Part shown: positions 2,561 to 22,814 of the stretch, piece by piece
How the letters are laid out: each line of letters starts with the position of its first letter
How positions within the stretch are numbered: position 1 is the stretch's first letter
DNA from: Plicaturopsis crispa FD-325 SS-3
Taxonomy: Eukaryota > Basidiomycota > Agaricomycetes > Amylocorticiales > Amylocorticiaceae
Length of the DNA: 22,814 bases
NCBI GenBank assembly: GCA_000827205.1
Contig: KN832581.1
Location: 8,252-31,065 of the forward strand
Direction: 5' to 3'
Made by a program: the position numbers and the translations under genes
Notes under the pieces: model-generated
Databases searched by the model: none
What the model was told of the DNA's origin: nothing
Seen by the model: the letters and a program-made list of their open reading frames with translations, nothing else

Positions 2561-2562
2561 GA

Positions 2563-2638
2563 ACGCGGATGTGGCTGAGCACTTCCCGACGCGTTGATAG
2601 ACGCGGAAGTGGCTGGGCACCTCCCGACGCGTCGCGTA
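2563..2638. repeat. Two-copy 38-bp tandem repeat
   Basis: The segment starting acgcggatgtggctgagcac at 2563 recurs at 2601 with three substitutions over the first 31 bases (acgcgga-gtggctg-gcac-tcccgacgcgt pattern). The last seven bases of the copies differ. Confidence 0.75.
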
Positions 2639-2829
2639 AGAGGTCGTCCGCACGCGCGGACTCTTGTCCGGGGCTTGGGTTCTAAATTATCGCTTTCCAA
2701 CAGTTAGCCGCTCGACGCGTGAAGCGCGCCGAGCACACCCCATCAACCGCAACACAGAAAAAACCATAGTAAGATAGAAAGTCTCGAATAACTGGATTTG
2801 ACCAGAGGGCCGAAAGGCTCCTCTACAAC

Positions 2830-3580: not shown

Positions 3581-3589
3581 TTTTTTATA

Positions 3590-4630: not shown

Positions 4631-4635
4631 AATGC

Positions 4636-4716
4636 CACTTTATTCTTCTCCACTTCATGTAAACCACTGGGGGACGCCCCGGCTGTGCTTTGCTTGAAGT
4701 GGAGCAGAATAAAGTG
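4636..4716. repeat. Imperfect foldback (24-bp arms, 22 paired)
   Basis: The arm at 4636-4659 (cactttattcttctccactt and four more bases) is the reverse complement of 4693-4716 except for two positions. The 33-base loop contains gggggacgcccc, itself nearly self-complementary, so a stem topped by a second small stem can form. A transcribed copy would give a small hairpin RNA; as DNA it resembles a foldback element. Confidence 0.75.
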
Positions 4717-4788
4717 CTTCTGGTACGGTGCATCGTTCTTAGGTCCCTGTCTGCTCATCACTTGTTTTTTTTGTTCAGACCAAGCATT

Positions 4789-4990
4789 ATCACACATTGG
4801 TATTCCCTTTGTTGTGAGTGACGCCGGTTATTTACCATAGTCACAGAGGTCCTGGGGGTTATAATCACACATTGGTATTCCCTTTGCTGTGAGTGACGCC
4901 GGTTATTCACCATAGTCACAGAGGTCCTGGGGGTTATAATCACACACTGGTATTCCCTTTGCTGTGAGTGACGCCGGTTATTCACCACAG
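4789..4990. repeat. 75-bp tandem repeat, about 2.7 copies
   Basis: The marker cacac[a/t]ttgg or cacacactgg recurs at 4791, 4866 and 4941, an exact 75-bp period. Copies differ at only a few positions, for example ttgttgtg versus ttgctgtg and tttacc versus ttcacc. The length is a multiple of three, so a minus-strand frame (4758-4994) reads as a 25-residue repeat. There is no signal peptide or domain in it, and I treat the frame as a by-product of the repeat. Confidence 0.9.
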
Positions 4991-4999
4991 CCAATTTTG

Positions 5000-5579
5000 C
5001 TGGGTGGTAGCAGCTTATCTGTGATGCTGCTGTTATTCACTTCAGTTTACAGAGGCTCAATCCGAGTTTTCTCGATCCGAGTTTGTGTGGGTTAGCGGCC
5101 ATTCCCGTCTGCTCATACAGTTGCTACCAGTTTCTTGAGGCTTCCTCACATCTACGGTATCTTTTTCTGTTCCTTTTTTCTTCTAATTCTCTGGTACTGA
5201 AGTTTACTTTGTTTGTGTAGATCATTACACTGGCTTTTTAGCACCATTTCGACAGTATCCGGTTTGTGACCTGGGTGCCTGCCTGGGTACGTCAATTTTA
5301 ACTATATGTGTGGACATTGTTTGCTAAGTCAGCATGTATGCTAGCACTGCGCAGTTATCCCTTGGATAGCACCCTGCTTCTTTCGGAGGCATCCAAAGAT
5401 GTTATCCAATGTACGTTCTCCGAGCTATCAGTGTCAAATAACTCTCTAACTGTATTTCTCAGTGCTCGGAGGCTTAGTAAGCCTTTTACCATACGACTTG
5501 GAACATACTGACCTATAACTTGCAGATATTCGTTTTGTGTTTCTATTTGACATTTGCTGCATTATTTTCCCCTTTCCCT
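5000..5579. other. No recognised gene
   Basis: T-rich sequence. A 67-codon frame at 5308-5511 has ordinary composition but no motif I can name and no supporting splice sites; it is not called. Confidence 0.4.
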
Positions 5580-5633
5580 CAAGTCCAAGGATGCGCAGAG
5601 GGGGGACGCCCCCTCTGCGCATCCTTGGACTTG
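5580..5633. repeat. Perfect hairpin, 25-bp arms with 4-nt loop
   Basis: Bases 5580-5604 (caagtccaaggatgcgcaga then ggggg) are exactly complementary to 5609-5633, with the loop GACG at 5605-5608. Pairing stops at both ends. There is no T-run directly after it, so it does not resemble a terminator. Confidence 0.95.
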
Positions 5634-5639
5634 TCCTTC

Positions 5640-6000
5640 GCATTTTTTTCTCAATTCTCGTTTTCTGGAATTACTTTCAAACTATTCAAACTGCTTGCCA
5701 ATGTAGTGTGACCCTGCAAATCGGAAACCAGGTGTGATTTAAGTGAATAGAGTATTGAACCTATGATCCATGAGGCAGGCTACAGCTGAGTCGGTGACCT
5801 GCTGCATGGCTTGACTATGACTGATGCGGCATCGCGAATTGCATCGAGGTGCTCTCAAACTCATCGCCTAAAGTAGGTATAAATATATAGACTCCCATGA
5901 CCGTGCTAGGCTACTCGGACACGTCGTGCTGACCGTCACACAAGCTTGAATATCGTCTTGTCGTCGTAGGTTTAGTAACTCACACCCTCAAATTATCAGC
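5640..6000. other. No recognised gene
   Basis: Read in all frames; nothing attributable. It may be the remains of the upstream part of the hAT element whose C-terminus lies at 6010-6330, but no hAT catalytic motif is visible. Confidence 0.35.
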
Positions 6001-6009
6001 CAGACACCC

Positions 6010-6330
6010 TGCAGTGCGTAAGGACGTGACTTCTGCGTTGCGATGGATATCTTGCCCGTGCAAGCATCTGCCGTACCCTGTGAGCGAGTGTTTTCCTCAA
6101 GTAAGGAGACTTGCACACTGCGACGTAACCGCACCTCGCCTCGGCTGCTTGAGGCACTGCAGATCCTCAAGTTCTCCTTCCGTAAGAGCTGTTTATCCTA
6201 TACGAACAAATATGTTGTTCACGAGCAAGATCACAGTATCTCGGGGCCGCTCACGGGGTACGCCGTGAATTAATGACGGCAGGAAAATACGACGAGCTCA
6301 AGGACCTCATTTGCAACATATCGGACTAGG
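6010..6330 (+). pseudogene. hAT transposase C-terminal dimerisation domain, frame-broken remnant
   Basis: The frame 6043-6273 reads MDILPVQASAVPCERVFSSS-KET-LRRNR-SPRLLEALQILKF-F. This is the signature of the hAT C-terminal dimerisation region (the PCERVFSSSK core is typical of fungal copies). The preceding residues HPAVRKDVTSA lie in another frame just upstream, at about 6008-6040. The likely C-terminal tail ELMTAGKYDELKDLICNISD lies in a third frame, ending at the stop near 6330. The continuity of family-like sequence across three frames argues for at least two small indels. The DDE catalytic portion and zinc finger are missing, so this is a dead fragment. Confidence 0.8.
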
Positions 6331-6960
6331 TATTTACTTGACACATATTCTATTTTGTGGCATTGTAACTACTTTAACGATACCTTAACGATCCACCGCA
6401 CTGATATCGACTTCAATGAGCTGTGCTTTTGGCCGCCGCTTGGCACAAACACAGCATTTTCATTGGCTGGGCCTGACGGGCCGAAATTGGCCGGCTTAGA
6501 CCCTTGCCTCGAACCCGTCTCGAGGTGTACCTCGATTCGCTTCGAGTTTTCGAGGCGAGCAACATTTGTCGCTTCGACTCGATTCCCGGCAACACTAGGC
6601 TAACCTCATGCAGCATGTTGTTCCTCTTTGCGCTTGCTGCGCTCTGGGCACACTGATTGCATGTTGCATTGTGGCTCTATGGCCTTGCAGTCTAAGTACT
6701 TTGCTGACTATGTAGTATGTGCCGCGTATATTGTATAAGAAAGTGAGAAAATTGTATATTTAGTATAGTACAACGGACCCCGGTGTATAGTAAAAATCAT
6801 ACCTAGGAGCTCATGCACCGTACAAGAAGCTAAGAAAAACATGAACCCCCTCTCAAGGATAGATCATAGCATTAACACACACAACAGTATGTAGAATTGC
6901 AAATCAGGAGTAGACGCCATACATTACGATGATCCCTGTAATACTGTAGTCTGTGCCACC
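6331..6960. other. No recognised gene
   Basis: A frame at 6355-6603 is open but has no nameable motif. The sequence from 6700 to 6930 is AT-rich and contains many stops in every frame. Confidence 0.4.
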
Positions 6961-6961
6961 T

Positions 6962-7467
6962 TTACAGTTCCGCATCCGCAAACCACCTCCAGTCTACCCT
7001 AAGCTTAGCATCGGTAGCAGCAACACCTGGGGCCCATTTTGAAATTGGGACTTCCACAATGTTGAATAGCGAAAATGATGGGTATTTGTGGATTCGGAAG
7101 AAAAACGCCCCTGTGGTGGATCCATATGTTGTCCCTAGGCGGATGGGATTCTTAGGCTGTGCTAAGGGCCGATATGTTTCTTCGTCATCGGGTACATTGT
7201 CCCAAATTTCGGCAGGGCAGAAGACAGGCGAGTTGGTGTTGATTACGGTGAACACCGCTCCATCCTCTTTAACCCACGGTCCGTCAAGGGTGATTTGCCA
7301 AGCACTGTGTTTGCTTTAAGATTTGATTTCTCACTACTGGAAAGGCTGACTTACTTTTCCTCGTCATGATTGCCATGCTGGCTATCCTGACTCACACGCC
7401 TTCCATCAATTTCATAGACCACTGTCGTATTGATCCGCAATGGTTGAGAGTTAAATGCTATAGCCAT
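6962..7467 (-). CDS. Small two-exon gene, uncharacterised 154-residue protein
   Basis: Modelled on the minus strand as exon 1 at 7467-7355 and exon 2 at 7313-6962, joined across a 41-nt intron (donor gtaagt, acceptor aaag) that keeps the frame. The start is the first ATG (MAIAFNSQPLRINTTVVYEI) and the stop is TAA at 6964-6962. The product has no signal peptide or membrane segment. It is rich in short hydrophobic, aromatic and threonine segments (GTTYGSTTGAFFFRIHKYPS, then VDWRWFADAEL at the end), suggesting a compact beta-rich protein, possibly lectin-like; I recognise no family. Its start is 167 bp from the proposed ATG of the plus-strand gene at 7634, so the two may share a divergent promoter. 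The intron is short even for this locus. Confidence rests on the clean splice and a composition unlike its neighbours. Confidence 0.55.
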
Positions 7468-7633
7468 AGTGATTGGGCTCAGTTTAGGATTGTGTAGAAG
7501 AATGAAAAGCGTTGAATGTATGTATTAATATGGGTCCATATTTGTATGTATTTGTAAAGGCACGTGACAGTTGACTTATAGCGGCCCAACTGTGGCTCAA
7601 CGGAACTCCCCGCCGTCTCTTGCTTATTTCCTT
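7468..7633. promoter_or_regulatory. Divergent intergenic region with E-box
   Basis: It lies between two genes reading away from each other. A CACGTG palindrome (bHLH-type E-box) sits at 7561-7566. No convincing TATA box was seen for either gene. The role is inferred from position only. Confidence 0.3.
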
Positions 7634-9496
7634 ATGACTTGGGCAACATCTTATCACCACATATTACATGCAAATGCCAATACTTGGCTTAATGCAGACG
7701 CCAAGACCCGCAGGGACGACATCATTCCACGGGTTGTAAAAGCCATTGAAGAGTACCACAAAGAGCACCCGGATAGCAAGAATCCTGGTAGCACTAGCAA
7801 GTTAACAAGTGTAAGCATGATTCACAATAGAATATTCATTATATTGATAATGTCAATACAGCGCATAAGCAATTGGTTTGCCAATAACGCTGCAGGCCGT
7901 TCAAATGGACGTTCAAACGAAGGGGGCCGGACCAAACGCTCCACTAAAGACGACGGGCCTCAATTTGGACGGAAATTCAATAAACGCAACGTTGTTGAGG
8001 CCCTATACAAAGAGGCAGTGATTGCAGAATGCAACTCCCGCACTGGAAATGCACCAGCTGGATCTTCAGCTGCACTCGCAGTATATCAGGCATGCGTAAC
8101 CCATGTTTCCAATCGTTTATCCGCAGAGCAAACTGCACAAGTGGAAGCGACCGTTGAAGAGTGGAATGAGCGAGGACCACCGCCTGAAGTGCAAAGAGTG
8201 TACGTACTATTTCAGTTTATATTATGAAATGCTCAAGTAAAATTACAGAACTGCGGACAAAAGGCTACGCCCGTACATCAAGTCTTTTGTATCGGAGATG
8301 AAGCACATTTGTGGCGCAGATCTCTTAGTGTTTGCTGCATGGGAACACGGCCCAGACGCGCAGCTGGTTACGTCAAAGTGAGTGGTATTTAGCATCAACA
8401 AAAAACAAACCTACAGGATGTACACAGGTTTCAAACGGAACCAGAAGAGGTCGCAGGGATCATAGAGGCTCGTAGGGAGGAGGTCGATGTGTTCCAGGCA
8501 GATGTTTTTGCGGATTACATTGCAGACACACGTGGCAAAGGTAAAGTGAAAAAAATCTTGGATGATAGTGTCATGCGGGCTGACAGTCACGCAGCATCAG
8601 ATGACGACGAGTCCGATGACGAAGATCATGACAGCAAGTTACGAAACATCAAGAGGATTGCTGAAAATGACATTCGCACCGACGAAGGAATCTTACTTCC
8701 AGATAAAGGAGACAAATCCCTAGCTACTGCGAAGCAGTACATGAGAGTATATATCACTTTGAGATATCGTAAGTGCCCAAAAATCTACAACATTTCGAAG
8801 CTAAGAAATTTCACCTAGGGGCATTCACCAATAATCGGCGTGCCAGTGTCCCATGGAAAGCAATATCGATGAACGTCAACCACTTTATTGAAAGTGAATG
8901 CCTTCCTAAAGACTTTGCGTTTATGGATCCCTGGCATTGGAAAGAGGACGCCCTGACAAAAATATGGTCTTTCTGGATACGTCGCCAGAATCAAGGGACA
9001 CCTGGACTTATTTTTCTTAACGGTGCGCCCAAAGACTTGCGAATGCTGGGGGAAAGAAACTCGATCAGGAAAAAGCCGAAGAAATATACCGAGATCAGCG
9101 ATAAGGAGGACGAAGACGGCAGCAGCAAGAATGCTTCAATGAATAGCAACAAAGACGGGGGTGAGGGTGCGGACGATGAGGAAAGGGCCGAAGACCAAGA
9201 GGAAGATGTGATGGCAGAAGCTGACATGGCAATCGAAATGGAGGAAGAAAGGAGCAGGATCGAGGAGAAGAAGGAGAAGGGAAAGGGAAAGGCGAAAGGT
9301 ATGAAGACTTTTATTTTAAGCAGATACTATGTTGACTTTAAATTCAATAGCGCAACATATCATCCAGCCCATGAGTCCTGCAGCCCACAAGAATAGTGCC
9401 GAAGATCGACTGGCATTTCTAAAGACACTTAGCCAAGAGCCGTGGTATCAGAATTTATGTGAAGCTATTCATCAGGAAAATCAAACTGGTTCCAAA
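7571..9496 (+). pseudogene. 5' half of a multi-exon conserved-looking gene of unknown function, interrupted at its 3' side
   Basis: Six exons join in frame through canonical 49-59-nt introns: 7634 (or the frame opening at 7571)-7810, 7862-8199, 8249-8377, 8428-8746, 8806-9298 and 9351 to about 9496. They give about 530 residues. The first ATG in frame is at 7634, but the true start may lie in an upstream exon I could not define. Visible parts are: an N-terminal helical region; RISNWFANN followed by a basic stretch (GRTKRSTK), faintly like a DNA-binding helix; a block containing CGADLLVFAAWEHGPDAQL; an acidic run (DDDESDDEDHD); a VPWKAI...FAFMDPWHWK block; and a long Glu/Lys-rich coil. From memory, this organisation resembles uncharacterised proteins that recur beside KDZ transposons in Agaricomycetes. 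The frame runs into the AT-rich edge of a large insertion and stops at 9526. Confidence 0.6.
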
Positions 9497-9867
9497 GTTG
9501 CTATAAGTTGCTCTAAATTGCTCTAAGTTGCTATATAGCTCATATAGTTCACATAGACACTATAGGTAGGTGCCAACTATATAGCACCGGATAGATGGCA
9601 CCTTTTGGGTGATGTGCTATTATAGCTCGTATAGTTACACTAGATTCCATTGATTTTACAGCATTTTCCCCTGCTATAATAGCTATAACAGCTCTAAGTG
9701 CACATATAGAAGTAGGTTCAAAATCAATTTATTTGTGCTAATTTAATACAAGTACTAATCTACTATCGTAGCCCACACAATGCAATCATGACCAGTAAGA
9801 TTCCTACCCTCACAAACAGCAAACACAGGGACATTAGCACATCATCACTTGCAAAGTTGTTCCACGA

Positions 9868-10560
9868 CTCACCGCGTGTTCCGCTTCCCACTGCACGGCC
9901 TCAAAGACGTACAATAATATAGGTTCAAGCTACGGCCTGAGGGGATAAGGGAGAAGATTAGGAATTGAGAGAGGGAGTAGAGAGGGGGGAGTACACTTAC
10001 CACCAAACAAGTACTAGCGGCGCCCCAGCGTCGCAGCTCACATTGCCCAGCTAGTACCCACAAGAGTGCAGGTGGTGGGGCACAAGCTGGCATGAGCGTT
10101 AGCATTTGGGAGGGGTGTCTATAAAAGGGCGCCAGCAACGAGCGCGAACTACACGACACGCAGTGCGACGGCCGTAGCTCGTGAGCATGTTTTCAACAAC
10201 TAAGAAAGATAATGGTACTCACATTGAATGGAATAAATTGAGATCACTCCAGTCCTAAGCTGAGGAGGGTGAGGAGGGAGTGAATTGTCGTCGACCAAGG
10301 CAATGAGCATGAACGTTGAGAGGAAAGAACAGAATGAAAAATTGACGTGGCATCAATGTGCAGAGTCCTGCAATCATTCCCACGCTAATTTCCCGTTCCC
10401 GCGCGTCGACTCTTGTCAAAATTTCTCTAAGTCCAATCTGTGTCTTATCTCCCCTCCTCGCACATTCCACACAATGCCATCGCTCGGGGATCTACAAGAA
10501 GGATAGCGGGTGTCTGTGACGAGGCTCACCAAGGATCAGGTGAGTGATTATGCCTCTTAT
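9868..10560. other. Interior of the insertion, no recognised gene
   Basis: A minus frame (9869-10159) and several short frames overlap here without motifs. The segment separates the AT-rich left edge from the GC-rich repeats. Confidence 0.4.
10120..10127 (+). promoter_or_regulatory. TATA-box-like motif
   Basis: TATAAAAG stands in a GC-rich setting (tctataaaagggcgcc). The downstream frame from the ATG near 10187 is only 21 codons, so there is no gene to assign it to. It may be fortuitous or a relic promoter of the inserted element. Confidence 0.25.
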
Positions 10561-10599
10561 TAATGTCATAGCGCAACTAACGCACCCCAGCGACCACCC

Positions 10600-12080
10600 G
10601 CGCCCACATGCAAAACAGCGACGGCGCGCAACGGTCCCTGCAACAAACGACCGACGCCCACCCCCGATCACGCCGGCGCAGCGCCAGAGGCGGCATGCTC
10701 GCGCAAAACAGCGGCGGCGCTCTAGGTCCCGACAACAAACCGCGCCTGCGCATAAAACGGTAGCGACACGCCACGGTTCCAGCTCCAAACCACCAACGCA
10801 GACGCCCAGCGCCGCGCCCACTCTCGACGGCGCCCACGCCCATGCGCGTTCTCGACGGCACCCACGCCCCCACGCACTCTTGACGGCGCCGGTCCCCATG
10901 CGCGTTTTCAACGGCGCCGGCGCCCATGCACATTTTCGACGGCGCCGGCGCCCATGCGTGTTCTCGACGACGCTCACGCACTCGCGCACTCTTGACGGCG
11001 CCCACGCCTGTGCGCGTCTCGAGAACGCCCCCGCCCTGCGCATTTTCGACGGTACCCCCATGTCCTCTGCGCGTGTCGACAACGCCCACGCCCACGGCGT
11101 TCTCGACAGCGCCCACACCTTCTCCCACTCTCGACGCACGCCCGTGCGCGTCCTCGACGACACCCCCACCTGCGCACGTTCTCAAACGACGCCTGCGCCT
11201 GCCCACGTCCTTGACAACGCCCACGCCCGCGCACGCCCGTGACAATGCCCACACCCGCGCACGCTCAACAACGCCCACACCCGCGCACGCCCTCAACAAC
11301 GCCCTTGCGCGCGCACGTCCTCAACGACACCCACACCCGCGCACGTCCTCAACGACGCCCGCGCCTGCCCACGTCCTCGAAGACGCCACGCCTGCACGCT
11401 CAACAGCGACAGTCGTACCGTGCGCAGCGTCGGCGCAGCGCCCCCGTCCATTGTGAGCGCCCACGCCCACACTCTGGATGGGTGCCCGTGCGACGACGCC
11501 CACGCCCGCGCACATTCTCGACGACCCCGATGCCCGAGGGCGTTTTCGACAACGCCCACGCTTGCGCGTTCTCGACAACACCAACGCCGTGCGCGTTTAC
11601 GACAGCGCCCACGCCCCCACACGTTTTCGACGGCGCCCACGCCCTCGCGCATGCTCGACAGCGCCCACACCCCCGCGCATTCTCGACACCGCCAACACCT
11701 CGCGCATTTTCGACACCCCCACGCCCCCTCGCGTTTTCGACAACGCGCACGGACGCCATGCGCAGCGCCCACGCCCTCCACACCCTCGCGTTTTTGACAA
11801 CGCCCACGCCCTTGCATTCTTGACAACACCCAAGCCCCCCCGCATTTTCGACAACGCGCACGGGCGCCGTGCGTATTTTCGACAACGCCTGTGCGCGTTT
11901 TTGACAGCGCAGCGCCAGAGGCGACACACATTCGCAAATCGGCGACGGTGCGCCACCGTCAGCAACAAACGATCCACACCCAACCGATCACGCCGGCGCA
12001 GTGCATGAGCAAAACGGCGACTGCACGCCATGGCCCCAACACCGAGATCACGCCAGTGCAGTGCCAGAGGCGCATACACC
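10600..12080. repeat. GC-rich minisatellite (~28-30-bp unit) flanked by a longer repeat
   Basis: From about 10830 to 11905, variants of gacggcgcccacgccc plus catgcgcgttctc repeat every 28-30 bp. A second family flanks it: gatcacgccggcgcag occurs at 10666 and 11986, with a variant at 12046, associated with gcgccagaggcg. The unit is not a multiple of three, but stops are rare, so long frames occur in several phases of both strands (for example 10544-11242 plus and 10577-11299 minus). Their Arg/Ala/Pro/Thr or Gly/Arg/Val/Cys repeats are shadows of the satellite rather than genes. Confidence 0.85.
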
Positions 12081-12328
12081 TGGAGGATGGTTATTATTCT
12101 AGTAGAAATATGTCATGTACTATAGTACTCAAATACACTTATTTTGGATTGTACTTCAATTTTCCACCTATGATGACTATGCAATCTATGGGAGCTATGA
12201 AAACTATAATAGTAACTTAGCCTTTTATTGGTTTGAATGTGCTTTTGCTTACAGTAGCTATAGTAGCTCTTATAGCTCTTATAGCAACAAAATTGCCCAA
12301 AGTAGCTATTATAGATGATCTTATCTCG

Positions 12329-12350
12329 ACTTTGTCTATATAGACAAAGT
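12329..12350. repeat. 22-bp perfect palindrome
   Basis: The sequence actttgtctat at 12329-12339 is followed by its exact reverse complement with no spacer. It lies at the right edge of the putative insertion, next to the 14-bp inverted repeat at 12350-12363. Confidence 0.9.
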
Positions 12351-12351
12351 G

Positions 12352-13022
12352 ATTTTCCTGATGTTTGCTCCCTCGATGTAAGTGAAGTTTTACTATGTGT
12401 TAAATCACAGCTTACAAAGACGGATAATAGAGCACAGGACGAGATAGCCCTGACACATTGCCTAATTGGTGCTCATGGGAGTTTCCCGACGTCTATCTTC
12501 CTGCACAATTTCACACTCAAGCTGGTTTCCGTGCGGACATGACGGCAATCTTAAACCAGCCAAAGTCTCCGATGGGCATTAGCCGTGCCTTCGGGGAGAC
12601 TTTGGTCTTGGGTGTGGGTTTGATGATTCACGAGGCTATGACGGTGAATGCTATTGAGCCTGACGAGGCGGACAATCCATCCAGTGATATTCCACGATGG
12701 GTGCTTGGTAGTCCTTTGGGCCTCGACGACACCCTTGGGTTTGAAGAGCCTTGCGAGAGGTTGCTCAAGCTGATGAAAAAGCCCAGAAACACAAAGCGCA
12801 AAGCAGGCGAAAGTTCCAAGTATGTCTCTGTTATGTCAACTATTGTCTGAATCTCACCGCGTATTTAGCACAAGCGACAGCGCATCCCTGCAAAAGGCCC
12901 TGAACCCGAACTTGTGTCGAAAGAAGCTCGAGAGAAAGCAGAAGAACAGGCTGAGAAGGAGCGCAAAAAGGGAAAAAAGGCAGCCCCAAGAAAAAAAAGG
13001 GCAAACAATGCTTAAACTCTAA
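12352..13022 (+). pseudogene. 3' part of the interrupted unknown gene
   Basis: Exons: the tail ending at 12377 (SDFPDVCSLD), then 12431-12819, then 12869 to about 13022. Introns are 12378-12430 (gtaagt to ataatag, with a cttac branch-like site) and 12820-12868 (gtatgt to atttag). The middle exon reads LPNWCSWEFPDVYLPAQF and later GETLVLGVGLMIHEAM. It then becomes Lys-rich and would fit as the C-terminal half of the gene broken at 9496. The last exon is ambiguous. The phase implied by the best donor reads a basic tail ending at 13022. Another frame, KGPEPELVSKEAREKAEE to a TAA near 13016, looks more protein-like and would need a weaker donor or implies a frameshift. The stop lies about 210 bp upstream of the dioxygenase start. 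Confidence 0.5.
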
Positions 13023-13232
13023 CGTAGCTTTGTGGCCATATATCTGGGCCAAAATAACATTTCTCATTAGATTCAGGATGTTTCATAGTATGAGGGATTG
13101 TGCTCAGAAGCGGAATGCAAGCCCGGTGTGGCTGAATACAATCATTGGCTTGATGATGTAATCTAGTCACATGATTGTTGAACTTCAGAAGTTTTTTTCA
13201 AAGGAACTGTATGCTTGGTTGTCTCGTGATTT

Positions 13233-14805
13233 ATGGGCAAAAGATCTCGCCACCATCATCATACACTTCCCAGGAAGAAGAGCAGAGCAGAATCAGGCTT
13301 TGCTCCAGCACAGTAAGAAATTCCTATTATAAGTCAGAATATATGCTAATCTATGAGCAGTGTGCCTGACCTTAAAGAGTATCTCTGGACTCAAATTCAG
13401 ATAGAGCTAAAATCCCGCACTGAGCTGTATGCATCCCAGCATAATAGAACAGCACCAGCACCAAAAAAAGAGCTGAGCACTATTCTGTATGTTATTATTA
13501 TGCTTTTCGAAAACAAATACTAACACAGTAATCATAAAGTGGACACTTGTACTGTGATCTGAGGCTATTGGAGACAGAGAGGGGGGCCAATATAGCCGAA
13601 ACCATCAAGAAAGAGGGTCAGATCATTGATCTTAATGAGCTGAAGATCATAGTTCTCAGTATTGTGGCAGCGATTCTAAACTCTGGTACGCTGCCAGATT
13701 GCATTATGAAGGATTGCTGATGAAATTATTTGATGTAGTCAAAGTGGAACTTGATGCCCAGCGGGTCACAGACCGGCTCAAAAACTACAGGGTCAACACC
13801 AACACTACTGGGTCTAATTCTGAGGTTGCTTTATCGAAGCTGTTCCCAAATACCAAGATTGGACACTTGGATAAGCCGACCACTATTGTGGATTCACATG
13901 GAAAAATACTTGTTTGGTTTCTGCCTAATATAATACATCCAGCTCGTACGGTGAGCTTAACTCAAGATCATAATATGACTGTCATGCTGATGTTTACGTT
14001 GTAGGGTAATACTAACAATGCCACTGCATCCATCAATCACCTTTTGCGCCGCGAATACAACGCAGCTATCGCATCAGAGAAGCCCTCTTGGCGCAACGAT
14101 GGCTTTCGCATCCAGACAAACAACAATCAATTTCATCCTGGTGTGGTCGATTTTGTCCCAGGGTGGTTTATGCAAGGGCACAAGGTACGAAATTGCTTCT
14201 GGTAGTCAGAATATTGCTGAGCGTGATACTAGAGGCCAGAAGACAAGCTTTACACGTCAAAGGCCTTCCGTGATGAAAGAACGGCTACATTTCTAAAGGC
14301 TATCACCCCGACAGAGATGCTGATAAATGCTGTCACTGCTCTTATCGCTCCAGACCTCTACGACATTGGTCGAGAAGCAATCGAGAGGCTAAAAACTGGA
14401 GACCATCTACAGACAAAGCACTCAAACGTCTCTTTATGGCCTTCAGTTTTCTCTGGAATCGAGGTGATCAGTAACAGGATTACCCCAAATCATCGCGACT
14501 GTGATGGCACATTTGAGGGATATGATCTTCTACTCAGCGGGGGATCGCACAGCCATGCAGAGATGTTTTTGGCTGACTTGGGGGCCAATCTAGCATACCA
14601 ACCAGGTACTGTGGTTGGCCTTTGTGGAAAGCTTTTGCGTCACGAAGTAGCGGACTGGAAGGGTGGAGAACGGGTTTGCTATGCACACTTTATGCGCGAT
14701 GCTGTTCACAGCCGCCTGGGAGTACGCAGAGCAAAATGGGTGGAAGAGAATATTTATCACAAGTTGATGTCAACTGAGTTTTTGGCACGACAGAGGGGAT
14801 ATTAA
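13233..14805 (+). CDS. TET/JBP-type 2-oxoglutarate/Fe(II) dioxygenase (predicted 5-methylcytosine oxidase)
   Basis: Six exons: 13233-13312, 13361-13486, 13540-13685, 13739-13950, 14005-14184 and 14233-14805. All introns are GT-AG, 48-54 nt, and the join keeps one frame (1317 nt, 438 aa). Intron 2 uses an AAG acceptor 16 nt after a tactaac branch site; the nearer CAG would lead to a stop. The start MGKRSRHHHH with a following RKKSR cluster suggests a nuclear protein. The middle has TTIVDSHGKILVWFLP and FVPGWFMQGHK, blocks I recall from mushroom TET/JBP-like proteins. The catalytic core follows WPSVFSGIEVISNR: iron ligands His335 and Asp337 (HRD), His385 in GKLLRHEV, and Arg395 in GERVCY for 2-oxoglutarate. 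These enzymes oxidise 5-methylcytosine in DNA. All core residues are present, so it looks intact. Only 164 bp separate its stop from the KDZ start on the same strand. The substrate is inferred; a related nucleic-acid oxygenase is the alternative. Confidence 0.83.
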
Positions 14806-14969
14806 TATGATCCTTGGCTTCTCAATGATGTCTACAAGGCTTAATAGCATGTGATACTTCAAGGGATGAAAGGGGCCATGAAAGTCATCGGAACGGGTAC
14901 CGGATCCTGTGTCATTCACATGTGCTGTGCCACGTCACAGCATTTTGCGCCTTTCCTTTCCTCGTCACC
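14806..14969 (+). promoter_or_regulatory. Short intergenic region between dioxygenase and transposase
   Basis: The 164 bp must hold the dioxygenase 3' end signals and the transposase promoter. No TATA box was seen. The transposase ATG at 14970 has an excellent context (caccATGcc), which is why I chose it over the upstream GTG-opened extension in the same frame. Confidence 0.4.
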
Positions 14970-17900
14970 ATGCCAAGCTCTAAAGCTACAAAGAAATCGG
15001 AGAGAGCCAAAGCCGTAAAGAAGAAGTCTGCTGTCATTGCTCTAGACTTCATAGAAAAGACTACCAAGGGAGGAAAAGTGGTCTATAAGGCACAGGAGGC
15101 CCCTTTGCGTCGCACCACTCGAGCATCTAGCAAAGCAACAAGCAGCACAACCAAAGGAACTCCGGATCCTGCTGAGGTCTGTCCAGACGCGGATGCTTCT
15201 ACTGGGGCATATGATGCTGGAAGTTCAGATAATCAAGACTTCAACTTTGAACAATCGACACCAAAGCGGAAAACCAAGGTACGAGTAACTTTTTTGGCTA
15301 ATATCAAATGCTTAAGCTGGAGAACAGACTCAAAACGACTTTATACGGGATTATCTACCCTTCAGACCTCAATATCTCCAGGAGCTACTTTATATGGAAG
15401 GTATCTCCGGTGATGGAATGTGTGGCCAGTGTAAATGCGCCAAAGGGGTTATACGGTGCACAGACTGTTTTGGAGATGGCTTGTGGTGTCGAGAGTGTTG
15501 CCTATCTGGACATGCACGACTACCCTTCCACCGGATTCAACACTGGAATGGACAATGCTTTGTGAAGAGCTCACTGTTCCACCTGGGCTATCTGTTGCAT
15601 TTGGGACATGGCGGTCAGCCTTGTCCAAGCCGGATAGATTCTGAAGAACAATGGGAGGATGTGCAAGGAAACGGAGAAGGAGGAATAGATATTTTGCAAG
15701 AAGACGAGGTTCCTGGAGTAGAAGGCAACAGGGCAGATTCCAAAAGTGGAGTAATGACGGTGGGGCATACGACCGGTGTGTTCCAGCATCGTGTGCGTTG
15801 GTGCGAGTGTGTGGGAGCCGCGGATCATCATCTCCAGCTCTTTCGGATGCCACTCTTCTCTGCAAGCATTTTGCGACCAAGGACAGCCTTCACGTTTGAT
15901 GTGCTGGACCATTTCTACATTGATGCCATGGAATGCAAGACTGCCGCCATGAGTTTCTTTCACAAGCTCCGGCGACTCACAAATAATGCTTTTCCAATGA
16001 CCGTACCAGTAAGTGATGTCACTCTTCTTAGATATTTATTCTTATATGTTTGATCAGAATCTTCACCGTGAAATCATGCGTATCTCACGTCAGTGGCGTG
16101 ACCTTCAAGACCGGAAACACTTTGGATACGGGCATGACACCGGGAAAACTCCAGGACCAGGGGACCTAATGTTGTTCTGTCCTGCCTGCCCCCAGCCAGG
16201 GATAAATCTACCAACAGACTGGAAGGCAAATCCACTTCAGTAAGCAAAGTATTTTCTTTGGCGGCATATATTAACATAGATGTAATAAAAACAGGTGGCT
16301 ATTTGTCCGAATGAAAGTAGTGGATGGGAATTTTTCTGCCCAGTCCATGCAAATGCGGAGGCCAGAACTGGATGTTGGGTTAACGGATGGAGAAGGAGGA
16401 ATGACATCAGAGGGTCCATATCAGCATCACTTGAAGAACACTCCCGAGATTAAGCAGGTACATATTTATTTATTTACTATCTGCATTTTCAACTGACATA
16501 GCAGCAAATCAGCGCTCAGGATGTGTGAAACATAACGCTATAAATTCAGCCAATCTTGAACGGAAAAACCTTGCGGCGACAGGAGGAGGAACATGTGCGT
16601 GCGGACGTCATGGAGCATTTGTTCCTCATTCTATGGTAGATTTTCAGAAGGGAGAGCGGTGAGTTGTTAGTGAGAGACAGACCGATATTAAAAACTAAAC
16701 ATGAATACAACAGCCAGATGAACATGGACTACGCAATCTGCGAGGCACTGAACTATCACACAAAAGGATTGCCAGGGGCCATTGTGGTATATGATGTGGC
16801 CTGTCAGTGGTTTGTACATTTCAAGGAGCGCCTTGACAAAAGCTCAACATTGACCAAAACGGACCTCAACATCATTGCGGCTATCGACAAATTCCATCTT
16901 GGAGTTCATATTCCGTCATGCTTTGTGAAATTCTCGTTGAATTTTATCCGAGGAGCCGCTCAGCTTGACGGTGCAATTCTGGAGACCCTGTGGACACCTT
17001 TCAACAAAACGTCGGCTAATGCCAGGGCAATGAGCAAAGCACACCGACGCGAAGTGTATAACAATCACATGCTGGATTCAAATTGGAAAAAGCTGGTGGG
17101 ACTGAGTACGTGAAGGTCTCATCATGATGGTTGTTGCATTGCTGACTATGAGAGATATATCTAGTACCTATGCTTTTGAAAAAAGCAAAGCGTGCTAAGA
17201 ATGGTGTTGAAGAAGCCAAGCATGCATTTGAGAAACTAACGGAGGCTGTAAAGGACCAATCCAAGGAGTGGGAAACTGCTTATGAGAAAGCTATGATGGA
17301 GCGAACAGACGAAAATCTCTCAATATTTGAGGTCAACATGGAAAAAGGTCAAATCTCAGTAGATTCAATGTTATAAACTAATAAAGCTCATATATGTGTG
17401 TAGCTCCATCACAGGCTCAGATACGCTTAGATTTGGCCTCTAACGAGAAGAATCAAGGCCTCAAAGGGGGCGCTATTGCATGGCTTGCAAGCGGAATTGC
17501 AATTGAGGGAGCCCAGTGAGTCCCTACAGTTCAACAAAATTTGAAGTAATATGGGGGTAACCTTTTCGAAAATCAGAGATAGCCTCCGAGCAGAAATTCG
17601 CAAAATGGGGTCACATCCAACAATCAAAATGAAAAATGACATCCAGGAGCGGCGCAGACGTCTAGAAGCAAGAATCGACACTTTTAACAAAAAAGGTTCC
17701 CAGTTCTTCGATAATATCGATGCTAGGGAAGGAAATCTACTTCCTGCAGTGGAGGATAATGTGGAAGAACTGGATGAAAGCGAGGAAGATGGAGAAACAG
17801 ATCACGAAGGGAATGATGATGACTCAGAAGAGGATGAAGCTGAGTGGCCAGAGCATATGCCTTTATGGATGCCGTCGTCATTGAAATCCAGAGAGACAAT

Positions 17901-18638
17901 GGATATTGGGATAAATTCCCTAGCGTCACAGGAGCGGAAACTCCGCCAAGGGCAGGCAAATGATGACCTCGAAGAGCTACGACTAGCGTTGGGACACAAA
18001 TCACTACTATATCGCACGGAACTACGACACACAAAGAGCAAAAAGGGAAAAACAAGAGCTTTTGGTCTCATTAAACGGGCAGATGCACAGGTCAAGAAGC
18101 ATTTGAGGAGCTATCGGAGAGCAAGGGCCGCATTGTTGAGGCTAGGAGAAGATGAGGATATAATGGAGGAGTATAAGGAAATCCACGAGTCAGACTTGAA
18201 ACTCAGCGGGGATGTTTCACATGAAAACCGGGCGGGTCAGAAAAGTGACAAATTGGCATGGTTCTGGGCTTTGCCTGGAGGGAAAAAGAACAAAAGCACC
18301 TGGATGACAGAATGTAAGTTCCAGTGTTTGTGATAATTGTTTGTTACTGAAACAAAAATGTAGTTTACCGTGTAAACTGGCTGCGAGCTAAAGCACGGTA
18401 CGAACGATGGGAAGAGGAGGTGCTAATTGTAGGAAATGAGATGCAGTGGACAGTCCTATGGTTTATGCATCAAAAGAACTGCTGGATCAAACGACGGGAT
18501 CAATGTGGTGAAGAGAACACCAATGGGCATAGAATCTATGCTCAAAAGCAGATCGGCATGTGGGATATGTTCATTGCAGAGGGAAAAAGAGGGTTCAAGG
18601 GATTCATGATACCACATAAGGAGCTAGAGGAGGAGTAA
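14970..18638 (+). CDS. KDZ-family transposase with CxC2 cysteine cluster
   Basis: Ten exons: 14970-15278, 15328-16008, 16058-16239, 16295-16457, 16513-16658, 16714-17105, 17165-17347, 17404-17515, 17577-18313 and 18364-18638. The nine introns are 49-61 nt, all GT-AG, and the join is open throughout (3180 nt, 1059 aa). Residues 1-103 are basic. A CxC2-type zinc cluster follows at about 135-171 (Cys135, 138, 147, 150, 157, 160 and His165, 171). The KDZ core includes RKNLAATGGGTCACGRHGAF, then FVPHSMVDFQKGE, then YDVACQW (Asp521), FHLGVH (554-559) and GAAQLDGAILETLW (574-587). The C-terminal region is charged, with a linker of Glu/Asp and then WLRAKARYERWEEE and MQWTVLWFM. It would cut and move the DNA element carrying it. 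The motif that I recall as DGE in relatives reads DGA (Ala581), although Glu584 is kept. It is followed within 25 bp by a satellite array. Confidence 0.9.
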
Positions 18639-18660
18639 AATGTCAATACAAGAAAATGTG

Positions 18661-19760
18661 TAGTGGACACAAGAAAACGGTAGACAAAATATTTGAAGTG
18701 TAACCGGGTGTGAGACATAACTTAAAGTAAGGAAAAGGCATTGTTACACTTAATGCATGTGAATAATGACAAACATATATGCCAGGCAAATAGTGACCAG
18801 GTGGTCATAGCCAAATATATAGACTGCATAGTCGTGGAAGGTGGAGTAGACCCTGGCCTTTGTGTCCGTGAGGCTGAGGAGAAGAATTCTTTAAAATGCC
18901 TCTTGAGCTGCTTGAGGAGACAAATCATAGAGATGGGCCAAAAAGCTGCCTACAGTCTTGTATTCTGGGTGTGGCAGATAAATCTCTGACCAAAATTATG
19001 CCAGTGTGAGTGGCGGACACAATGATACTGTAGCCGAAATATTTTGGGACTGTGCCGCGGATACAATGAAATGGTAGGCAGAATATTCTGAGGTGGCGGG
19101 GCAGACACAAAGAAACCATAGCCAAAATATTCTAAGACAGAGCGGCGGATACCATGAAATGGTGGACAGAATATTCTGAGGGTGAGCGGCGGACATGAAG
19201 ACACCATAGCCAAAATATTCTGGGCATGAGCGGCGGATGCGAGGATATGCCCATAAGAATATTCTGAGTGTAAGAAGTGGCTACAATAATACCAGAGCCA
19301 AGATATTGTAAGGTGTAGCAGCGGACACAAAGGCACCGTAGCCAAAATATTCTGTGCATAAGAGGGCGGACACTAACAAACCGTAACCAAAATATCCCGA
19401 GGGTGAGCGGTGGATACAACAAAACAGAAGGCAAAATGTTCTGAGGGGGGGGGCAGACACGAAGAAACCGTAGCAAAAATATTCCGAGGGTGAGCGGCGG
19501 ATACAAGAAAACAGAAGCCAAAATATTCTGAGGCGGAGGGGCGGATACGAAGAAACCGTAACCAAAATATTGCGAGGGTGAGCGGCGGATACAAGAAAAC
19601 AGAAGCCAAAATATTCTGAGGCGGAGGGGCGGATACGAAGAAACCGTAGCAAAAATATTCCGAGGGTGAGCTGCGGATACAAGAAAACAGAAGCCAGAAT
19701 AATCTAAGGCGTAGGGGCGGATATAAGGAAATGGGAGGGAGAATATTCTAAGGGTGAGTG
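18661..19760. repeat. ~44-bp satellite organised in part as 88-bp dimers, AATATT core
   Basis: Variants of gcggcggatacaagaaaac plus agaagccaaaatattctgag repeat from just after the transposase stop. The clearest part (about 19440-19690) has an exact 88-bp period: gagggtgagc-gcgg begins at 19486, 19574 and 19662. Each dimer holds two ~44-bp monomers, each with an AAAATATTC core. Copies before 19400 are more diverged. Minus-strand frames up to 257 codons (19132-19905) read repeats such as ASEYFGF and are shadows of the array. Confidence 0.85.
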
Positions 19761-19854
19761 GGCCAGGTAAGAACATGGTGGGTGGATACGACAAGACAGA
19801 TGTCAAAATATTCCCACAATGTGGGTATAGCCAGCAAAATACAGTACAGTATTG

Positions 19855-19951
19855 AGCCAGTATGGTGCAGTGGCAAAGCGCGGGTGTTGTGTGGCGTGGG
19901 AACATTTATCCGTCAGTCCTGGGTTCGAATCCTGGTCCTGGATTACTTTTT
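19855..19951 (+). repeat. tRNA-like Pol III module (decayed tRNA or SINE head)
   Basis: A near-consensus A box (tggtgcagtgg, 19863-19873) and an exact B box (ggttcgaatcc, 19922-19932) lie 48 bases apart. A run of five T at 19947-19951 follows, as for Pol III termination. D-arm pairing (gtgc with gcgc) and the T-arm (ctggg with cctgg) form. The acceptor stem pairs only about five of seven bases, and the anticodon/variable part is too long for a plain tRNA. I read it as a tRNA-derived repeat rather than a working tRNA; an intron-containing tRNA is less likely. Confidence 0.6.
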
Positions 19952-20139
19952 GCACTGGCGGATGTGCTTCAGAATATTTTGAGCTTCAGGGGCCCATACC
20001 CTCAGGCAATATCTCATATGCAGGCGGATACGACACACCATACACAAAATATTCTAAGTAGGGGGGGAAACAGATGTGGGACCACCCTTGTAGATAGGAC
20101 AAAATATAATTTGGCTGATCCTATGAGATAGGCCTCAGA

Positions 20140-20147
20140 ATATTCAT
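20140..20147. repeat. Left target-site duplication
   Basis: ATATTCAT immediately precedes the left terminal inverted repeat and is repeated exactly at 22596-22603. Confidence 0.93.
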
Positions 20148-20489
20148 CACCTGTGATTCCCACATATCGTGGCTACTTAGCCTTGCTATCGACCCCCCTA
20201 TCGCATGGCTAAGTAGCCAGCGTTTGACGTACGTACCGCGTCTCTCAATAATTCCTCAATATCTCTCGCAGGCACTTGGTAGAATTTGCGTGAATGCAGC
20301 GACACGCGCTACAATGAGCCCATCAGGGACTGATTGATGGCTTGCCGTGCGGCACGATGCCGCCCCGCCTTTGCCTGCAGTCGCGCCCGAACGCGTCGGG
20401 CGACACCGTCGCGGTGCTTGCCACTGTCGTCGTCAGTGAGCTTGACTCACTGCCTTAGTTTTATGCCTTTTCCTCCGGGTTCTTTCGCA
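20148..20489 (+). repeat. Left terminal inverted repeat (342 bp)
   Basis: It is complementary to 22254-22595 at 341 of 342 positions; the difference is gagcttgactc here versus gagctcgactc on the reversed right copy. It contains an internal hairpin at 20170-20219. Open frames within it are mirrored in the right copy and are not genes. Confidence 0.95.
20170..20219. repeat. Subterminal hairpin within the left TIR
   Basis: Thirteen-bp arms tggctacttagcc (20170-20182) and its complement (20207-20219) flank a 24-base loop that also contains ctatc and gatag-type pairing around six C. The same structure occurs mirrored in the right TIR at 22524-22573. Confidence 0.85.
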
Positions 20490-22253
20490 TCTTTCGCATG
20501 TATACTGTTTGAGCAATGGAATTAAGTGTACATATATCTCATTCCCCGCGACCTGCGCATGTGCGCGACATGTGAGTTTGTGCTGCTGCGGCCTACAACA
20601 CGGTAGCAGCGGCACTGCGTTGGGGCATCCTCCAGTGGCGAAACCTCAATCGGCCCGGGGAACATGTTGCTCCATTTGCCCTGGTCGGATTCCAACAGTA
20701 CGGCAGTGGGAAAGAAATCATAGCAGAAGGTTGGCGAGTGGGGCGCGGGCCGCACGGCAGACGCAAGACTGGGGGGCAGAAAAAGGCTGGCCGAAGACTC
20801 TCTTGAGACTCTGTACCTTACGGCGTCGCTAGCTGCACGAGGCTCGTTACCCATATCATGAACAGACGGATTGAAATCGGAGCTGACGCGGAGGGGGATA
20901 TAGTAGCGAGAGCCGAGACTACAGATATGATAGTCTTCAAGTCATAGGTCAGCAGCATCATGGGTGTTATGTTAAGACACGACACTCACTTATAGACTGG
21001 GCAGATGGCCGCTAGTCTGGTGGAGGGTACTATATCTTCATTCTTGTCCGTCGTCGCCGGAGTCACGGTCGTCCGACTTGGATTAAGGGCAGTGTACTGT
21101 TTTCATTGACATTAGTATCTTACTGGCTGTAGCACGGAATAAAGCGGATGAGCCTTCGAAGCGGTATATGTAGTAGTAGGCCTCGCCGTCGCTTTACTGC
21201 ACGAGCACCGCGATCTCCTGCAGATACTGAAGATGATGTTGAGTATGGCAAAAGAGGTTTACGACTTGCCATGATACTGGTAAGACTTAAACTTGTGTGC
21301 GAAGTTTCGAATGGCAGTCGTCCTATGTCAGTGCAAGCTGGGGAACAGTACTAGTCTCGACGGCAGTTGAGGGTGGAACGAAGTTAAACGTGCCACTGAG
21401 TCTACGCGCGGGGAAGATTAGATTTCATTTCACTTGCATTTCACCGCGTCCGACACCGTGACGATCCGCTGCAGCTGCCAGACTGGCACAACGTCGACGT
21501 CGTGTCTCATCCTCTCAAAGCTTCCCTTGACTGCTTTGCATACGATCCATACGCCATGGTATGTATTAATTTGCATTTTTTGATAGCGCTTTCACTTAAC
21601 TTTGACCATGTTCGACATAGTCCGACTTGCGTCCGACATCGTTCGACATCGTCCGGCATGCGTTCGCTATCGTTCGGCATGCGTTCGCTATCGTTCGCCA
21701 GCGTCCGACATAGGTTCACGTCCGACATTGTGCCCCGGCGGTAAGCGCAATATTCGTCTAGCGGGCACTCGCCATACTCGAGCCATGCCGCATTGCCTGC
21801 GGCATCGTTGCAGTCATTTAGGGAGGATACAGACTCGGAGCTGGTACAAAGACTACAGTACTAGTGAGCTATTTCTTTTGCATTATCACTGTATAACATA
21901 TATCGTACTCTCATGAGCTTCCAGACGCTGTCGCATCTCCGACACAACCATACAGTCTGCACCCGCCTCGACATCGAGAGCCCACACCCACTGTCAAGGC
22001 CCGCCGCAGCATACAAGTACTGTATCGGAGGTGGTATGCCCTCGGGAGTGCTAATGCCCACTCTGTCTGGGTCACAGAGTCAGCAGCATATGCTCCCCTT
22101 ACAAACGTGCTTGGGTCAAGATAACCGATGCACGCATGCGCTGGGCTCGCTCCGACAACTTTGTTATCACAGTTATATACTTCTGCACCGAACTTTACCT
22201 TTATGTTTGCAGTGCACAGTGTATTAGTGATTTATTTACATATATAAACTGGC
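20490..22253. other. Interior of the 2448-bp element, no recognised gene
   Basis: Frames at 20509-20832, 21148-21354 and 21913-22227 are open but short and lack motifs. The only structure I see is a short repeat at 21610-21735. The interior could include captured host sequence. Confidence 0.5.
21610..21735. repeat. Short tandem repeat based on gttcg/tccgacat words
   Basis: Words of about 10-11 bp (tccgacatcgt, gttcgctatc) recur. A 21-bp unit starting catgcgttcgctatcgttcg is present in two adjacent copies. Confidence 0.75.
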
Positions 22254-22595
22254 TGCGAAAGAACCCGGAGGAAAAGGCATAAAACTAAGGCAGTGAGTCG
22301 AGCTCACTGACGACGACAGTGGCAAGCACCGCGACGGTGTCGCCCGACGCGTTCGGGCGCGACTGCAGGCAAAGGCGGGGCGGCATCGTGCCGCACGGCA
22401 AGCCATCAATCAGTCCCTGATGGGCTCATTGTAGCGCGTGTCGCTGCATTCACGCAAATTCTACCAAGTGCCTGCGAGAGATATTGAGGAATTATTGAGA
22501 GACGCGGTACGTACGTCAAACGCTGGCTACTTAGCCATGCGATAGGGGGGTCGATAGCAAGGCTAAGTAGCCACGATATGTGGGAATCACAGGTG
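22254..22595 (-). repeat. Right terminal inverted repeat (342 bp)
   Basis: It is the inverted copy of 20148-20489 with one substitution and no indel, ending in CAGGTG directly before the duplicated ATATTCAT. Confidence 0.95.
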
Positions 22596-22603
22596 ATATT
22601 CAT
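22596..22603. repeat. Right target-site duplication
   Basis: Exact copy of the 8 bp at 20140-20147. The sequence continuing after it (ccgccgaca) resembles satellite words, as expected if the satellite was interrupted. Confidence 0.93.
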
Positions 22604-22814
22604 CCGCCGACATTGCTTGGACCGACCAGAACGGTTTAAAATGAAAATGGGGTCTGCGAGAAAAAGGGAAACATATTATTTGTTTGACTGATACATGTGT
22701 CGCTCAGAGGTCTACTATATCTTGATTTGTGTTATGCTGTACTACACTATTTAGCAATACAATCTACTTTCCTTGAGAAACGTCGCAATTGAAGATCGTG
22801 GATACAATTTGGAG
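22604..22814. other. Nothing recognised
   Basis: AT-leaning sequence without long frames or repeats, cut by the end of the window. Confidence 0.4.

What the first reader, a model, noticed from the sequence alone, without database searches (positions are those of the whole stretch)
13233..18638. Apparently open TET/JBP dioxygenase - KDZ transposase tandem
Seen: a six-exon gene with the HxD...H...R layout of a 2OG/Fe(II) oxygenase, and 164 bp downstream on the same strand a ten-exon gene with CxC2 and KDZ motifs. Both stay open through all modelled splices. Known: TET/JBP genes have been reported next to KDZ transposons in basidiomycetes. Inference: the pair works as one mobile unit in which DNA oxidation counters or redirects methylation silencing of the element.
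Basis: partly seen in the sequence, partly recalled or inferred. Interest (0 to 1): 0.85.

Follow-up and report, generated by a model that had tools for sequence, protein, structure and literature searches.

The report
Transposon pair: DNA demethylase plus transposase
In a wood-rotting fungus, a gene for an enzyme that probably oxidises methylated DNA sits head-to-tail with a transposase gene in what looks like an old jumping DNA element; this arrangement is a known kind, and this copy shows signs of long exposure to DNA methylation while both proteins stayed intact.

Summary
Window 13233-14805 encodes a six-exon, 438-aa TET/JBP oxygenase; 164 nt later, 14970-18638 encodes a ten-exon, about 1060-aa KDZ transposase with a CxC2 zinc cluster. 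Both are open. The host is Plicaturopsis crispa FD-325 SS-3 (Amylocorticiales). A paralogue 60 kb away has the same six exons and 58% identity, supporting the splice model and protein constraint. The closest solved structure is CcTet, whose catalytic residues and Gly331/Asp337 are kept. The kind is known: TET+ Kyakuja elements (Kojima 2025, PMC12730594).

What I add: (1) this KDZ gene groups with the two other KDZ genes found near a TET gene in this genome; gene order differs at all three loci. (2) The element's right end is at 22699; a relative on contig C8 has a 7-bp target duplication and CA..TG ends, as Kyakuja has. (3) Two later elements are nested (9470-12363, 20148-22595); the left end was not found. 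(4) Both genes have about half the expected CpG at silent codon sites and in introns but normal CpG at codon positions 1-2, unlike 25 KDZ segments elsewhere in the genome. That fits long CpG methylation under protein constraint. Joint mobility and counter-silencing remain inference.

The parts
13233..14805 (+). TET/JBP dioxygenase gene, exons 13233-13312, 13361-13486, 13540-13685, 13739-13950, 14005-14184, 14233-14805; 438 aa
   Evidence: open splice model; PF12851; CcTet E 7.4e-29; same exons in the paralogue
14491..14526 (+). TET active-site stretch HRDCDGTFEGYD: H335, D337, G340 (place of CcTet Gly331), D346 (place of CcTet Asp337)
   Evidence: roles of Gly331/Asp337 from PMC12730594
14970..18638 (+). 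KDZ transposase gene, ten exons, 1057-1063 aa, CxC2 cluster plus KDZ domain
   Evidence: D/D/E candidates VVDGN, YDVACQ, ILETLW aligned (which residues are catalytic is recalled and inferred)
14806..14969 (+). 164-nt gap between the TET stop and the KDZ start, candidate for a readthrough transcript
   Evidence: P. crispa polycistronic mRNAs average 364 nt between ORFs (PMC4503453)
18639..20139 (.). 3' non-coding part with a 44/88-bp tandem array (about 19008-19731)
   Evidence: 19805-20148 is 71% identical to C8
20148..22595 (.). nested 2448-bp element with 344-bp perfect inverted ends and 8-bp duplication ATATTCAT (20140-20147, 22596-22603); recent by its identical ends
   Evidence: searches (arms; uninterrupted relative at C8), letters read
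22604..22699 (.). right terminal stretch of the KDZ element, ending ...GATACATGTG
   Evidence: similarity to C8:1632341 stops here and the flanks differ
7634..13015 (+). upstream orphan gene (public model PLICRDRAFT_33046, 497 aa) and its probable 3' remainder; broken by the insertion at 9470-12363; membership in the element uncertain
   Evidence: splice identical over 488 aa to P0003; 3' remainder inferred from position and open frame
9470..12363 (.). nested 2894-bp repeat, inverted ends CATCAGGAAAATCA, 2-bp duplication TT, Plavaka-B-like ends; no transposase noticed in its frames
   Evidence: sharp copy borders; termini read; criteria from PMC12730594

Best explanation
This is an old but still coding copy of a KDZ DNA transposon, most likely of the Kyakuja type, that carries an AG-type TET/JBP gene. 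Shown: the two genes and their families, the conserved active-site residues, protein constraint on TET, grouping of this KDZ gene with the other TET-linked KDZ genes, a right terminus, and a CpG deficit confined to silent sites and introns. Inferred: the transposase mobilises the element by cut and paste, and the TET oxidises 5mC (and possibly 6mA, as CcTet does) on the element or genome-wide, which keeps the transposase expressed in a methylating nucleus. The element has lived under CpG methylation for a long time; silent CpGs decayed while selection kept both proteins. Later insertions broke the neighbouring gene and split the 3' end.
For: Pfam matches; CcTet E=7.4e-29 with H326, D328, Gly331 and Asp337 all matched; same six exons in the C28:82-kb paralogue, dN 0.37 and dS 2.2, the latter saturated; the three TET-linked KDZ genes form a clade, local support 0.997, among the 20 of 31 KDZ loci that were held; right end shared with a C8 element that has the exact 7-bp duplication CACGTAG, CA..TG ends and a duplicate of its empty site at C8:1639758; silent CpG o/e 0.44 (TET) and 0.51 (KDZ) against 1.02 pooled over 25 control KDZ segments (lowest single control 0.71), while codon positions 1-2 are 1.01 and 1.10 against 1.13; introns 0.51, ten CpG, no intron control; PF00145 at three loci; published TET+ Kyakuja class, and oxidised methylcytosine around Kyakuja copies in Coprinopsis cinerea as cited there (PMC12730594).
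Against: No DNA-level second copy of the pair found. Left terminus and a partner for the right-flank 7-mer TCGCTCA not found; a candidate at 3596 fell because it lies inside another repeat. The contig left of the window reads N, so it could not be searched. TET and KDZ order differs at C1 and C31. Two of the five TET loci have no KDZ found within 10 kb. The C8 element shows imperfect inverted ends, whereas the two reference Kyakuja families are described as lacking them, and its interior reads N, so what it encodes is unknown. The CpG deficit could be inherited composition rather than methylation; the TET paralogue and a few other loci (L011, L014, L037, L077) are low too.
Confidence: 0.72

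Rival explanations
1. Two genes placed side by side: a host or orphan TET gene next to an unrelated KDZ relic in a transposon-rich contig, with no shared mobility.
For: TET genes at C28:82 kb and C5:3 kb have no KDZ found within 10 kb; order and strand differ at C1 and C31; no second copy of the pair found.
Against: The KDZ genes near TET form one clade of their own among those compared; the two window genes share the same silent CpG deficit; published elements enclose both kinds of gene (PMC12730594).
Confidence: 0.2
2. The TET gene has been taken over by the host as a genome-wide 5mC oxidase and the KDZ gene is a bystander.
For: TET protein constraint, dN/dS about 0.17 with saturated dS; a paralogue without KDZ found nearby.
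Against: KDZ is equally open and shows the same pattern of silent CpG deficit with positions 1-2 spared; several diverged TET copies instead of one.
Confidence: 0.12
3. About the CpG pattern only: the deficit reflects composition inherited from another host (horizontal transfer) or from the family, not methylation in this genome.
For: The TET paralogue also has low silent CpG, 0.58; GC of the pair is about 45% against 50-61% in most of the other loci held.
Against: GpC is not reduced and TpG+CpA is raised, 1.25-1.27; codon positions 1-2 are spared; the related KDZ genes at C1 and C31 lack the deficit.
Confidence: 0.35

Closest known systems
TET+ Kyakuja DNA transposons of Agaricomycotina (Kojima 2025, PMC12730594)
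   Same: AG-type TET with HxD, Gly or Ser at 331 and Asp at 337; KDZ transposase; 7-bp duplication and CA..TG ends in the C8 relative
   Different: Host order Amylocorticiales is not among the five orders named there; the C8 relative has imperfect inverted ends; the window copy is nested and its left end is not seen; its transposase was not placed on a tree with Kyakuja references
CcTet of Coprinopsis cinerea (PDB 7vpn, 7w5p, 8jkk)
   Same: Catalytic stretch and both residues linked to 6mA and 5mC kept; best PDB match
   Different: The significant match covers the catalytic half (query residues 226-419); activity of the window protein untested
TET/JBP-KDZ association and oxidised methylcytosine near KDZ copies (Iyer et al. 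2014, recalled; Chavez et al. as cited in PMC12730594)
   Same: Linkage of both gene families in basidiomycetes and the silencing idea
   Different: Neither paper was read here; whether P. crispa was included is unknown to me

Membership tests
TET/JBP dioxygenases (PF12851) | Family profile match above cut-off | tested here: met
   63.8 bits against 34.9
TET/JBP dioxygenases (PF12851) | HxD...H...R iron and 2OG residues | tested here: met
   H335, D337, H385, R395 aligned with CcTet; the role of the Arg is recalled
TET/JBP dioxygenases (PF12851) | Oxidises 5mC | not testable with these tools
   needs an enzyme assay
AG-type TET (PMC12730594) | HxD rather than HxE, with Gly or Ser at 331 and Asp at 337 (CcTet numbers) | tested here: met
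   G340 and D346 at these places
KDZ transposases (PF18758) | Family profile match with the associated zinc cluster | tested here: met
   KDZ 142.6 bits against 26.6; CxC2 80.5 against 27
TET+ Kyakuja transposon | 7-bp target duplication | tested here: inconclusive
   Met in the C8 relative, exact CACGTAG; for the window copy TCGCTCA has no partner in window 1-20000, and the contig left of the window reads N
TET+ Kyakuja transposon | CA..TG termini | tested here: inconclusive
   Right end TG at 22699; left end not found
TET+ Kyakuja transposon | No terminal inverted repeats | tested here: inconclusive
   The C8 relative shows imperfect inverted ends of about 49 bp
TET+ Kyakuja transposon | Transposase falls in the Kyakuja branch | not tested
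   no reference Kyakuja, Dileera or Zisupton sequences at hand
Plavaka-B (for the insert 9470-12363) | CATCA..TGATG ends with a 2-3-bp duplication | tested here: met
   letters, copy borders
Plavaka-B (for the insert 9470-12363) | Plavaka transposase | not tested
   frames of the insert were listed but not searched against families; it would be a non-autonomous relative

The most novel reading that the evidence does not exclude
The pair records a long coexistence of a TET-armed transposon with CpG methylation: CpGs that could be lost without changing the proteins are about half gone, those that could not are kept. So the TET does not protect its own DNA from deamination but lets the genes stay useful while methylated, perhaps through a TET-transposase readthrough mRNA across the 164-nt gap.
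Probability: 0.3. Interest if true: 0.6.

Novelty: new member of a known kind. Interest (0 to 1): 0.38.

Why it matters
Whether transposon-borne TET enzymes really fight silencing has not been validated by experiment (stated in PMC12730594). This copy lies in a fungus with a public genome and published full-length transcript reads, and the same genome holds related TET-KDZ loci at C1 and C31 without the CpG deficit. That gives a paired comparison for expression, methylation and oxidised methylcytosine.

Tried and rejected
Left terminus: the right-flank 7-mer TCGCTCA has no exact partner in window 1-20000; a scan of C28 from base 1 added nothing because C28:1-8251 reads N throughout (seen). A scan for CA..TG ends with 7-bp repeats over C1, C31 and C28 gave only unconvincing pairs. 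A match at 3596 scored above all 210 resampled controls, but other copies run across it inside a dispersed repeat, 3480-4055, so it was rejected. HMG-box idea for the upstream gene (recalled from Iyer et al.): no Pfam family for its first five exons, one database hit, itself, no relative found in the genome, fold prediction too poor to use, mean pLDDT 39. One search stopped with an error after the window rows; one search did the rest. Some control frames were on the wrong strand; one search replaces all of them. A weak sixth TET hit at C3:782608 is below cut-off and was not counted. The protein search with TET found only two relatives, 41 and 36% identical, among the 7994 candidates it scored. 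A bacterial promoter scan between the genes and a plasmid search with the inverted end (no match) were of no use.

Full report
Observation. The finding's genes are really there. The TET gene has six exons (13233-14805), 438 aa, with five GT-AG introns of 48-54 nt. The KDZ gene has ten exons (14970-18638); four acceptor choices stay open, giving 1057-1063 aa. The gap is 164 nt. Pfam: Tet_JBP 63.8 bits, KDZ 142.6 bits, CxC2 80.5 bits, all above their cut-offs.

Organism. The window is C28:8252-31065 of a 33.2-Mb genome in 49 contigs. A protein of the window matched PLICRDRAFT_33046 of Plicaturopsis crispa FD-325 SS-3 on a contig of 115,031 bases, the length of C28. P. crispa belongs to Amylocorticiales.

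The splice models are more than chance. A TET paralogue at C28:82.3 kb has the same six exons with introns at the same places, 433 aa, open, 57.8% identical over 431 aligned codons. Identities at codon positions 1, 2 and 3 are 64, 78 and 42%; NG86 gives dN 0.37 and dS 2.2, the latter saturated. The stop reported for it lies in an intron. The KDZ model aligns in stretches between residues 104 and 1046 with the KDZ genes of C1 and C31, 32-61% identity by stretch.

Enzyme. The best PDB matches are two CcTet sequences, E 7.4e-29 and 8.8e-29. H326, D328, Gly331 and Asp337 of CcTet correspond to H335, D337, G340 and D346; the distal H385 and R395 are present. PMC12730594 says that Asp337 is essential for 5mC and that Gly331 and Asp337 facilitate 6mA recognition. 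The other TET genes on C1, C5 and C31 are 35-40% identical in the catalytic part and have Ser at the Gly331 place.

Linkage. One search gave 43 KDZ rows, which I grouped by position into 31 loci. One search gave six TET rows, five above cut-off. Three of these five have a KDZ gene within 10 kb: the window, C1 (convergent, TET on +, KDZ on -) and C31 (KDZ first, both on +). For C5:3 kb and C28:82 kb none was found; stretches that read N cannot be excluded. Under random placement P is 6e-5, or 2e-3 without the window; clustering of transposons makes this optimistic. In a tree of 20 of the 31 KDZ loci (the window and the 19 others held) the three TET-linked genes form a clade with local support 0.997. 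So the association goes with one KDZ lineage here, but gene order is not conserved.

Element structure. The 8.1-kb query 12001-20140 found no second copy of the pair; the only match to either gene was the TET paralogue at 69% DNA identity. Downstream, 19805-20148 and 22596-22699 match C8 at 71 and 89%, with the intervening 2.4 kb absent at C8. Hence 20148-22595 is a later insertion; its 344-bp inverted ends are perfect. The KDZ element ends at 22699 with ...GATACATGTG, where similarity to C8 stops and the flanks differ. At C8 the element is bounded by an exact 7-bp duplication CACGTAG, begins CA and ends TG, and a duplicate of its empty site, identical over the 60 flanking bases compared on each side, lies 1.6 kb away. 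These are Kyakuja features as described. Its ends are imperfect inverted repeats over about 49 bp, while Kyakuja-1_LB and -2_LB are said to have none. 5178 of the 5792 bases of the C8 element read N, so I cannot say what it encodes; its tie to KDZ rests on the shared 3' part. The left end of the window's element was not found: TCGCTCA has no partner in window 1-20000, the contig left of the window reads N throughout, and a candidate at 3596 was rejected.

Nested insert and upstream gene. 9470-12363 is a dispersed repeat: of 74 other rows, 15 begin within three bases of 9470 and 16 end within three bases of 12363 (counted by eye). It has 14-bp inverted ends CATCAGGAAAATCA and a 2-bp duplication (read), as described for Plavaka-B. 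It sits in an upstream gene whose first five exons I spliced and which equals the public model over 488 aa. Those exons have no Pfam family, no relative found in this genome (their first 214 aa) and one hit, itself, in the protein database. Whether the gene belongs to the element is open; its silent CpG ratio, 0.73, lies between that of the pair and the controls.

CpG pattern. CpG o/e is 0.60 in TET and 0.65 in KDZ, against 1.24 and 1.12 in the two nested inserts; GpC is not reduced and TpG+CpA is raised. By codon position, TET has 1.01 (1-2), 0.38 (2-3), 0.49 (3-1); KDZ has 1.10, 0.44, 0.56; their introns together 0.51, from ten CpG and without an intron control. 25 KDZ segments from 19 other loci give 1.13, 0.98, 1.05 pooled; six of the 25 hold one or two stops, for they run across introns or are decayed. 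The silent-site deficit has Poisson P 1.3e-6 (TET) and 1.4e-10 (KDZ) against the control rate; the lowest single control is 0.71. Some other loci are low as a whole: L011 (C5 TET) 0.67, L077 and L014 (C3) 0.67 and 0.70, L037 (C6) 0.72. The plain reading is loss of methylated CpG by deamination while selection removed replacement changes. 17 CGA codons, each one C-to-T step from a stop, are present. Inherited composition is the main rival, since the TET paralogue also shows 0.58. PF00145 matches lie at three loci, so a DNA methylase is plausible, though that family is not specific to DNA substrates (recalled).

Mechanism. Shown: genes, residues, constraint on TET, linkage with one KDZ lineage, a right terminus, the CpG pattern. 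Inferred: transposition by the KDZ protein, 5mC oxidation, benefit to the element. P. crispa makes many polycistronic mRNAs with a mean inter-ORF distance of 364 nt (PMC4503453; outline, abstract and passages seen), so a TET-KDZ readthrough mRNA over 164 nt is possible and testable; no transcript was looked at here.

Known or new. PMC12730594 (outline, abstract, text parts 1-4 of 7, section 26, figure legends and passages seen) already describes TET+ Kyakuja elements in five orders of Agaricomycotina and proposes escape from methylation; it also cites oxidised methylcytosine around Kyakuja copies in Coprinopsis cinerea. The words Plicatur, Amylocortic and CpG do not occur in its main text; its supplements were not seen. 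Searches for KDZ and TET, for Kyakuja, Dileera or Zisupton (30 of 68 papers listed), for Plicatura crispa with methylation (none) and for two of Kyakuja, CpG, Amylocorticiales and Plicaturopsis (10 of 15 listed) showed no title or abstract start that reports this locus; a fourth search with Plicaturopsis crispa, transposable elements and DNA methylation (15 of 8163 listed) was too broad to tell. This library lacks most subscription journals, and Iyer et al. 2014 was not seen. I therefore file it as a new member of a known kind.

Noticed in passing
window 20148-22595: 2448-bp element with 344-bp perfectly identical inverted ends and 8-bp duplication; relatives with about 76-82% identical ends on C1, C8, C17 and C19. 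Superfamily not determined.
   Followed up: partly
window 9470-12363 and about 2844-4055: Two repeat families, each with a GC-rich minisatellite part beside a sharp conserved end; the first has Plavaka-B-like termini.
   Followed up: partly
window 18762-18948: 188 bp, 83% identical to part of an open frame on C2:2954312, minus strand; possibly a captured host gene fragment in the element's 3' part.
   Followed up: partly
window 6962-7467, minus strand: Small gene divergent from the upstream orphan gene; relatives of parts of it at C3:777205-777387, 75-79% DNA identity.
   Followed up: partly
C8:1632334-1638139 and C8:1639758 (L032, L076): Filled and empty sites of an element that shares the KDZ element's right end, in duplicated sequence on one contig with identical flanks.
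   Followed up: yes
L012 (C28:82.3 kb) and L011 (C5:3 kb): TET genes without a KDZ gene found within 10 kb; the C28 one is open and 58% identical to the window's.
   Followed up: partly
window 5580-5633: 54-bp palindrome repeated at C17:127858 and at C28:85545, 2.6 kb from the TET paralogue.
   Followed up: no
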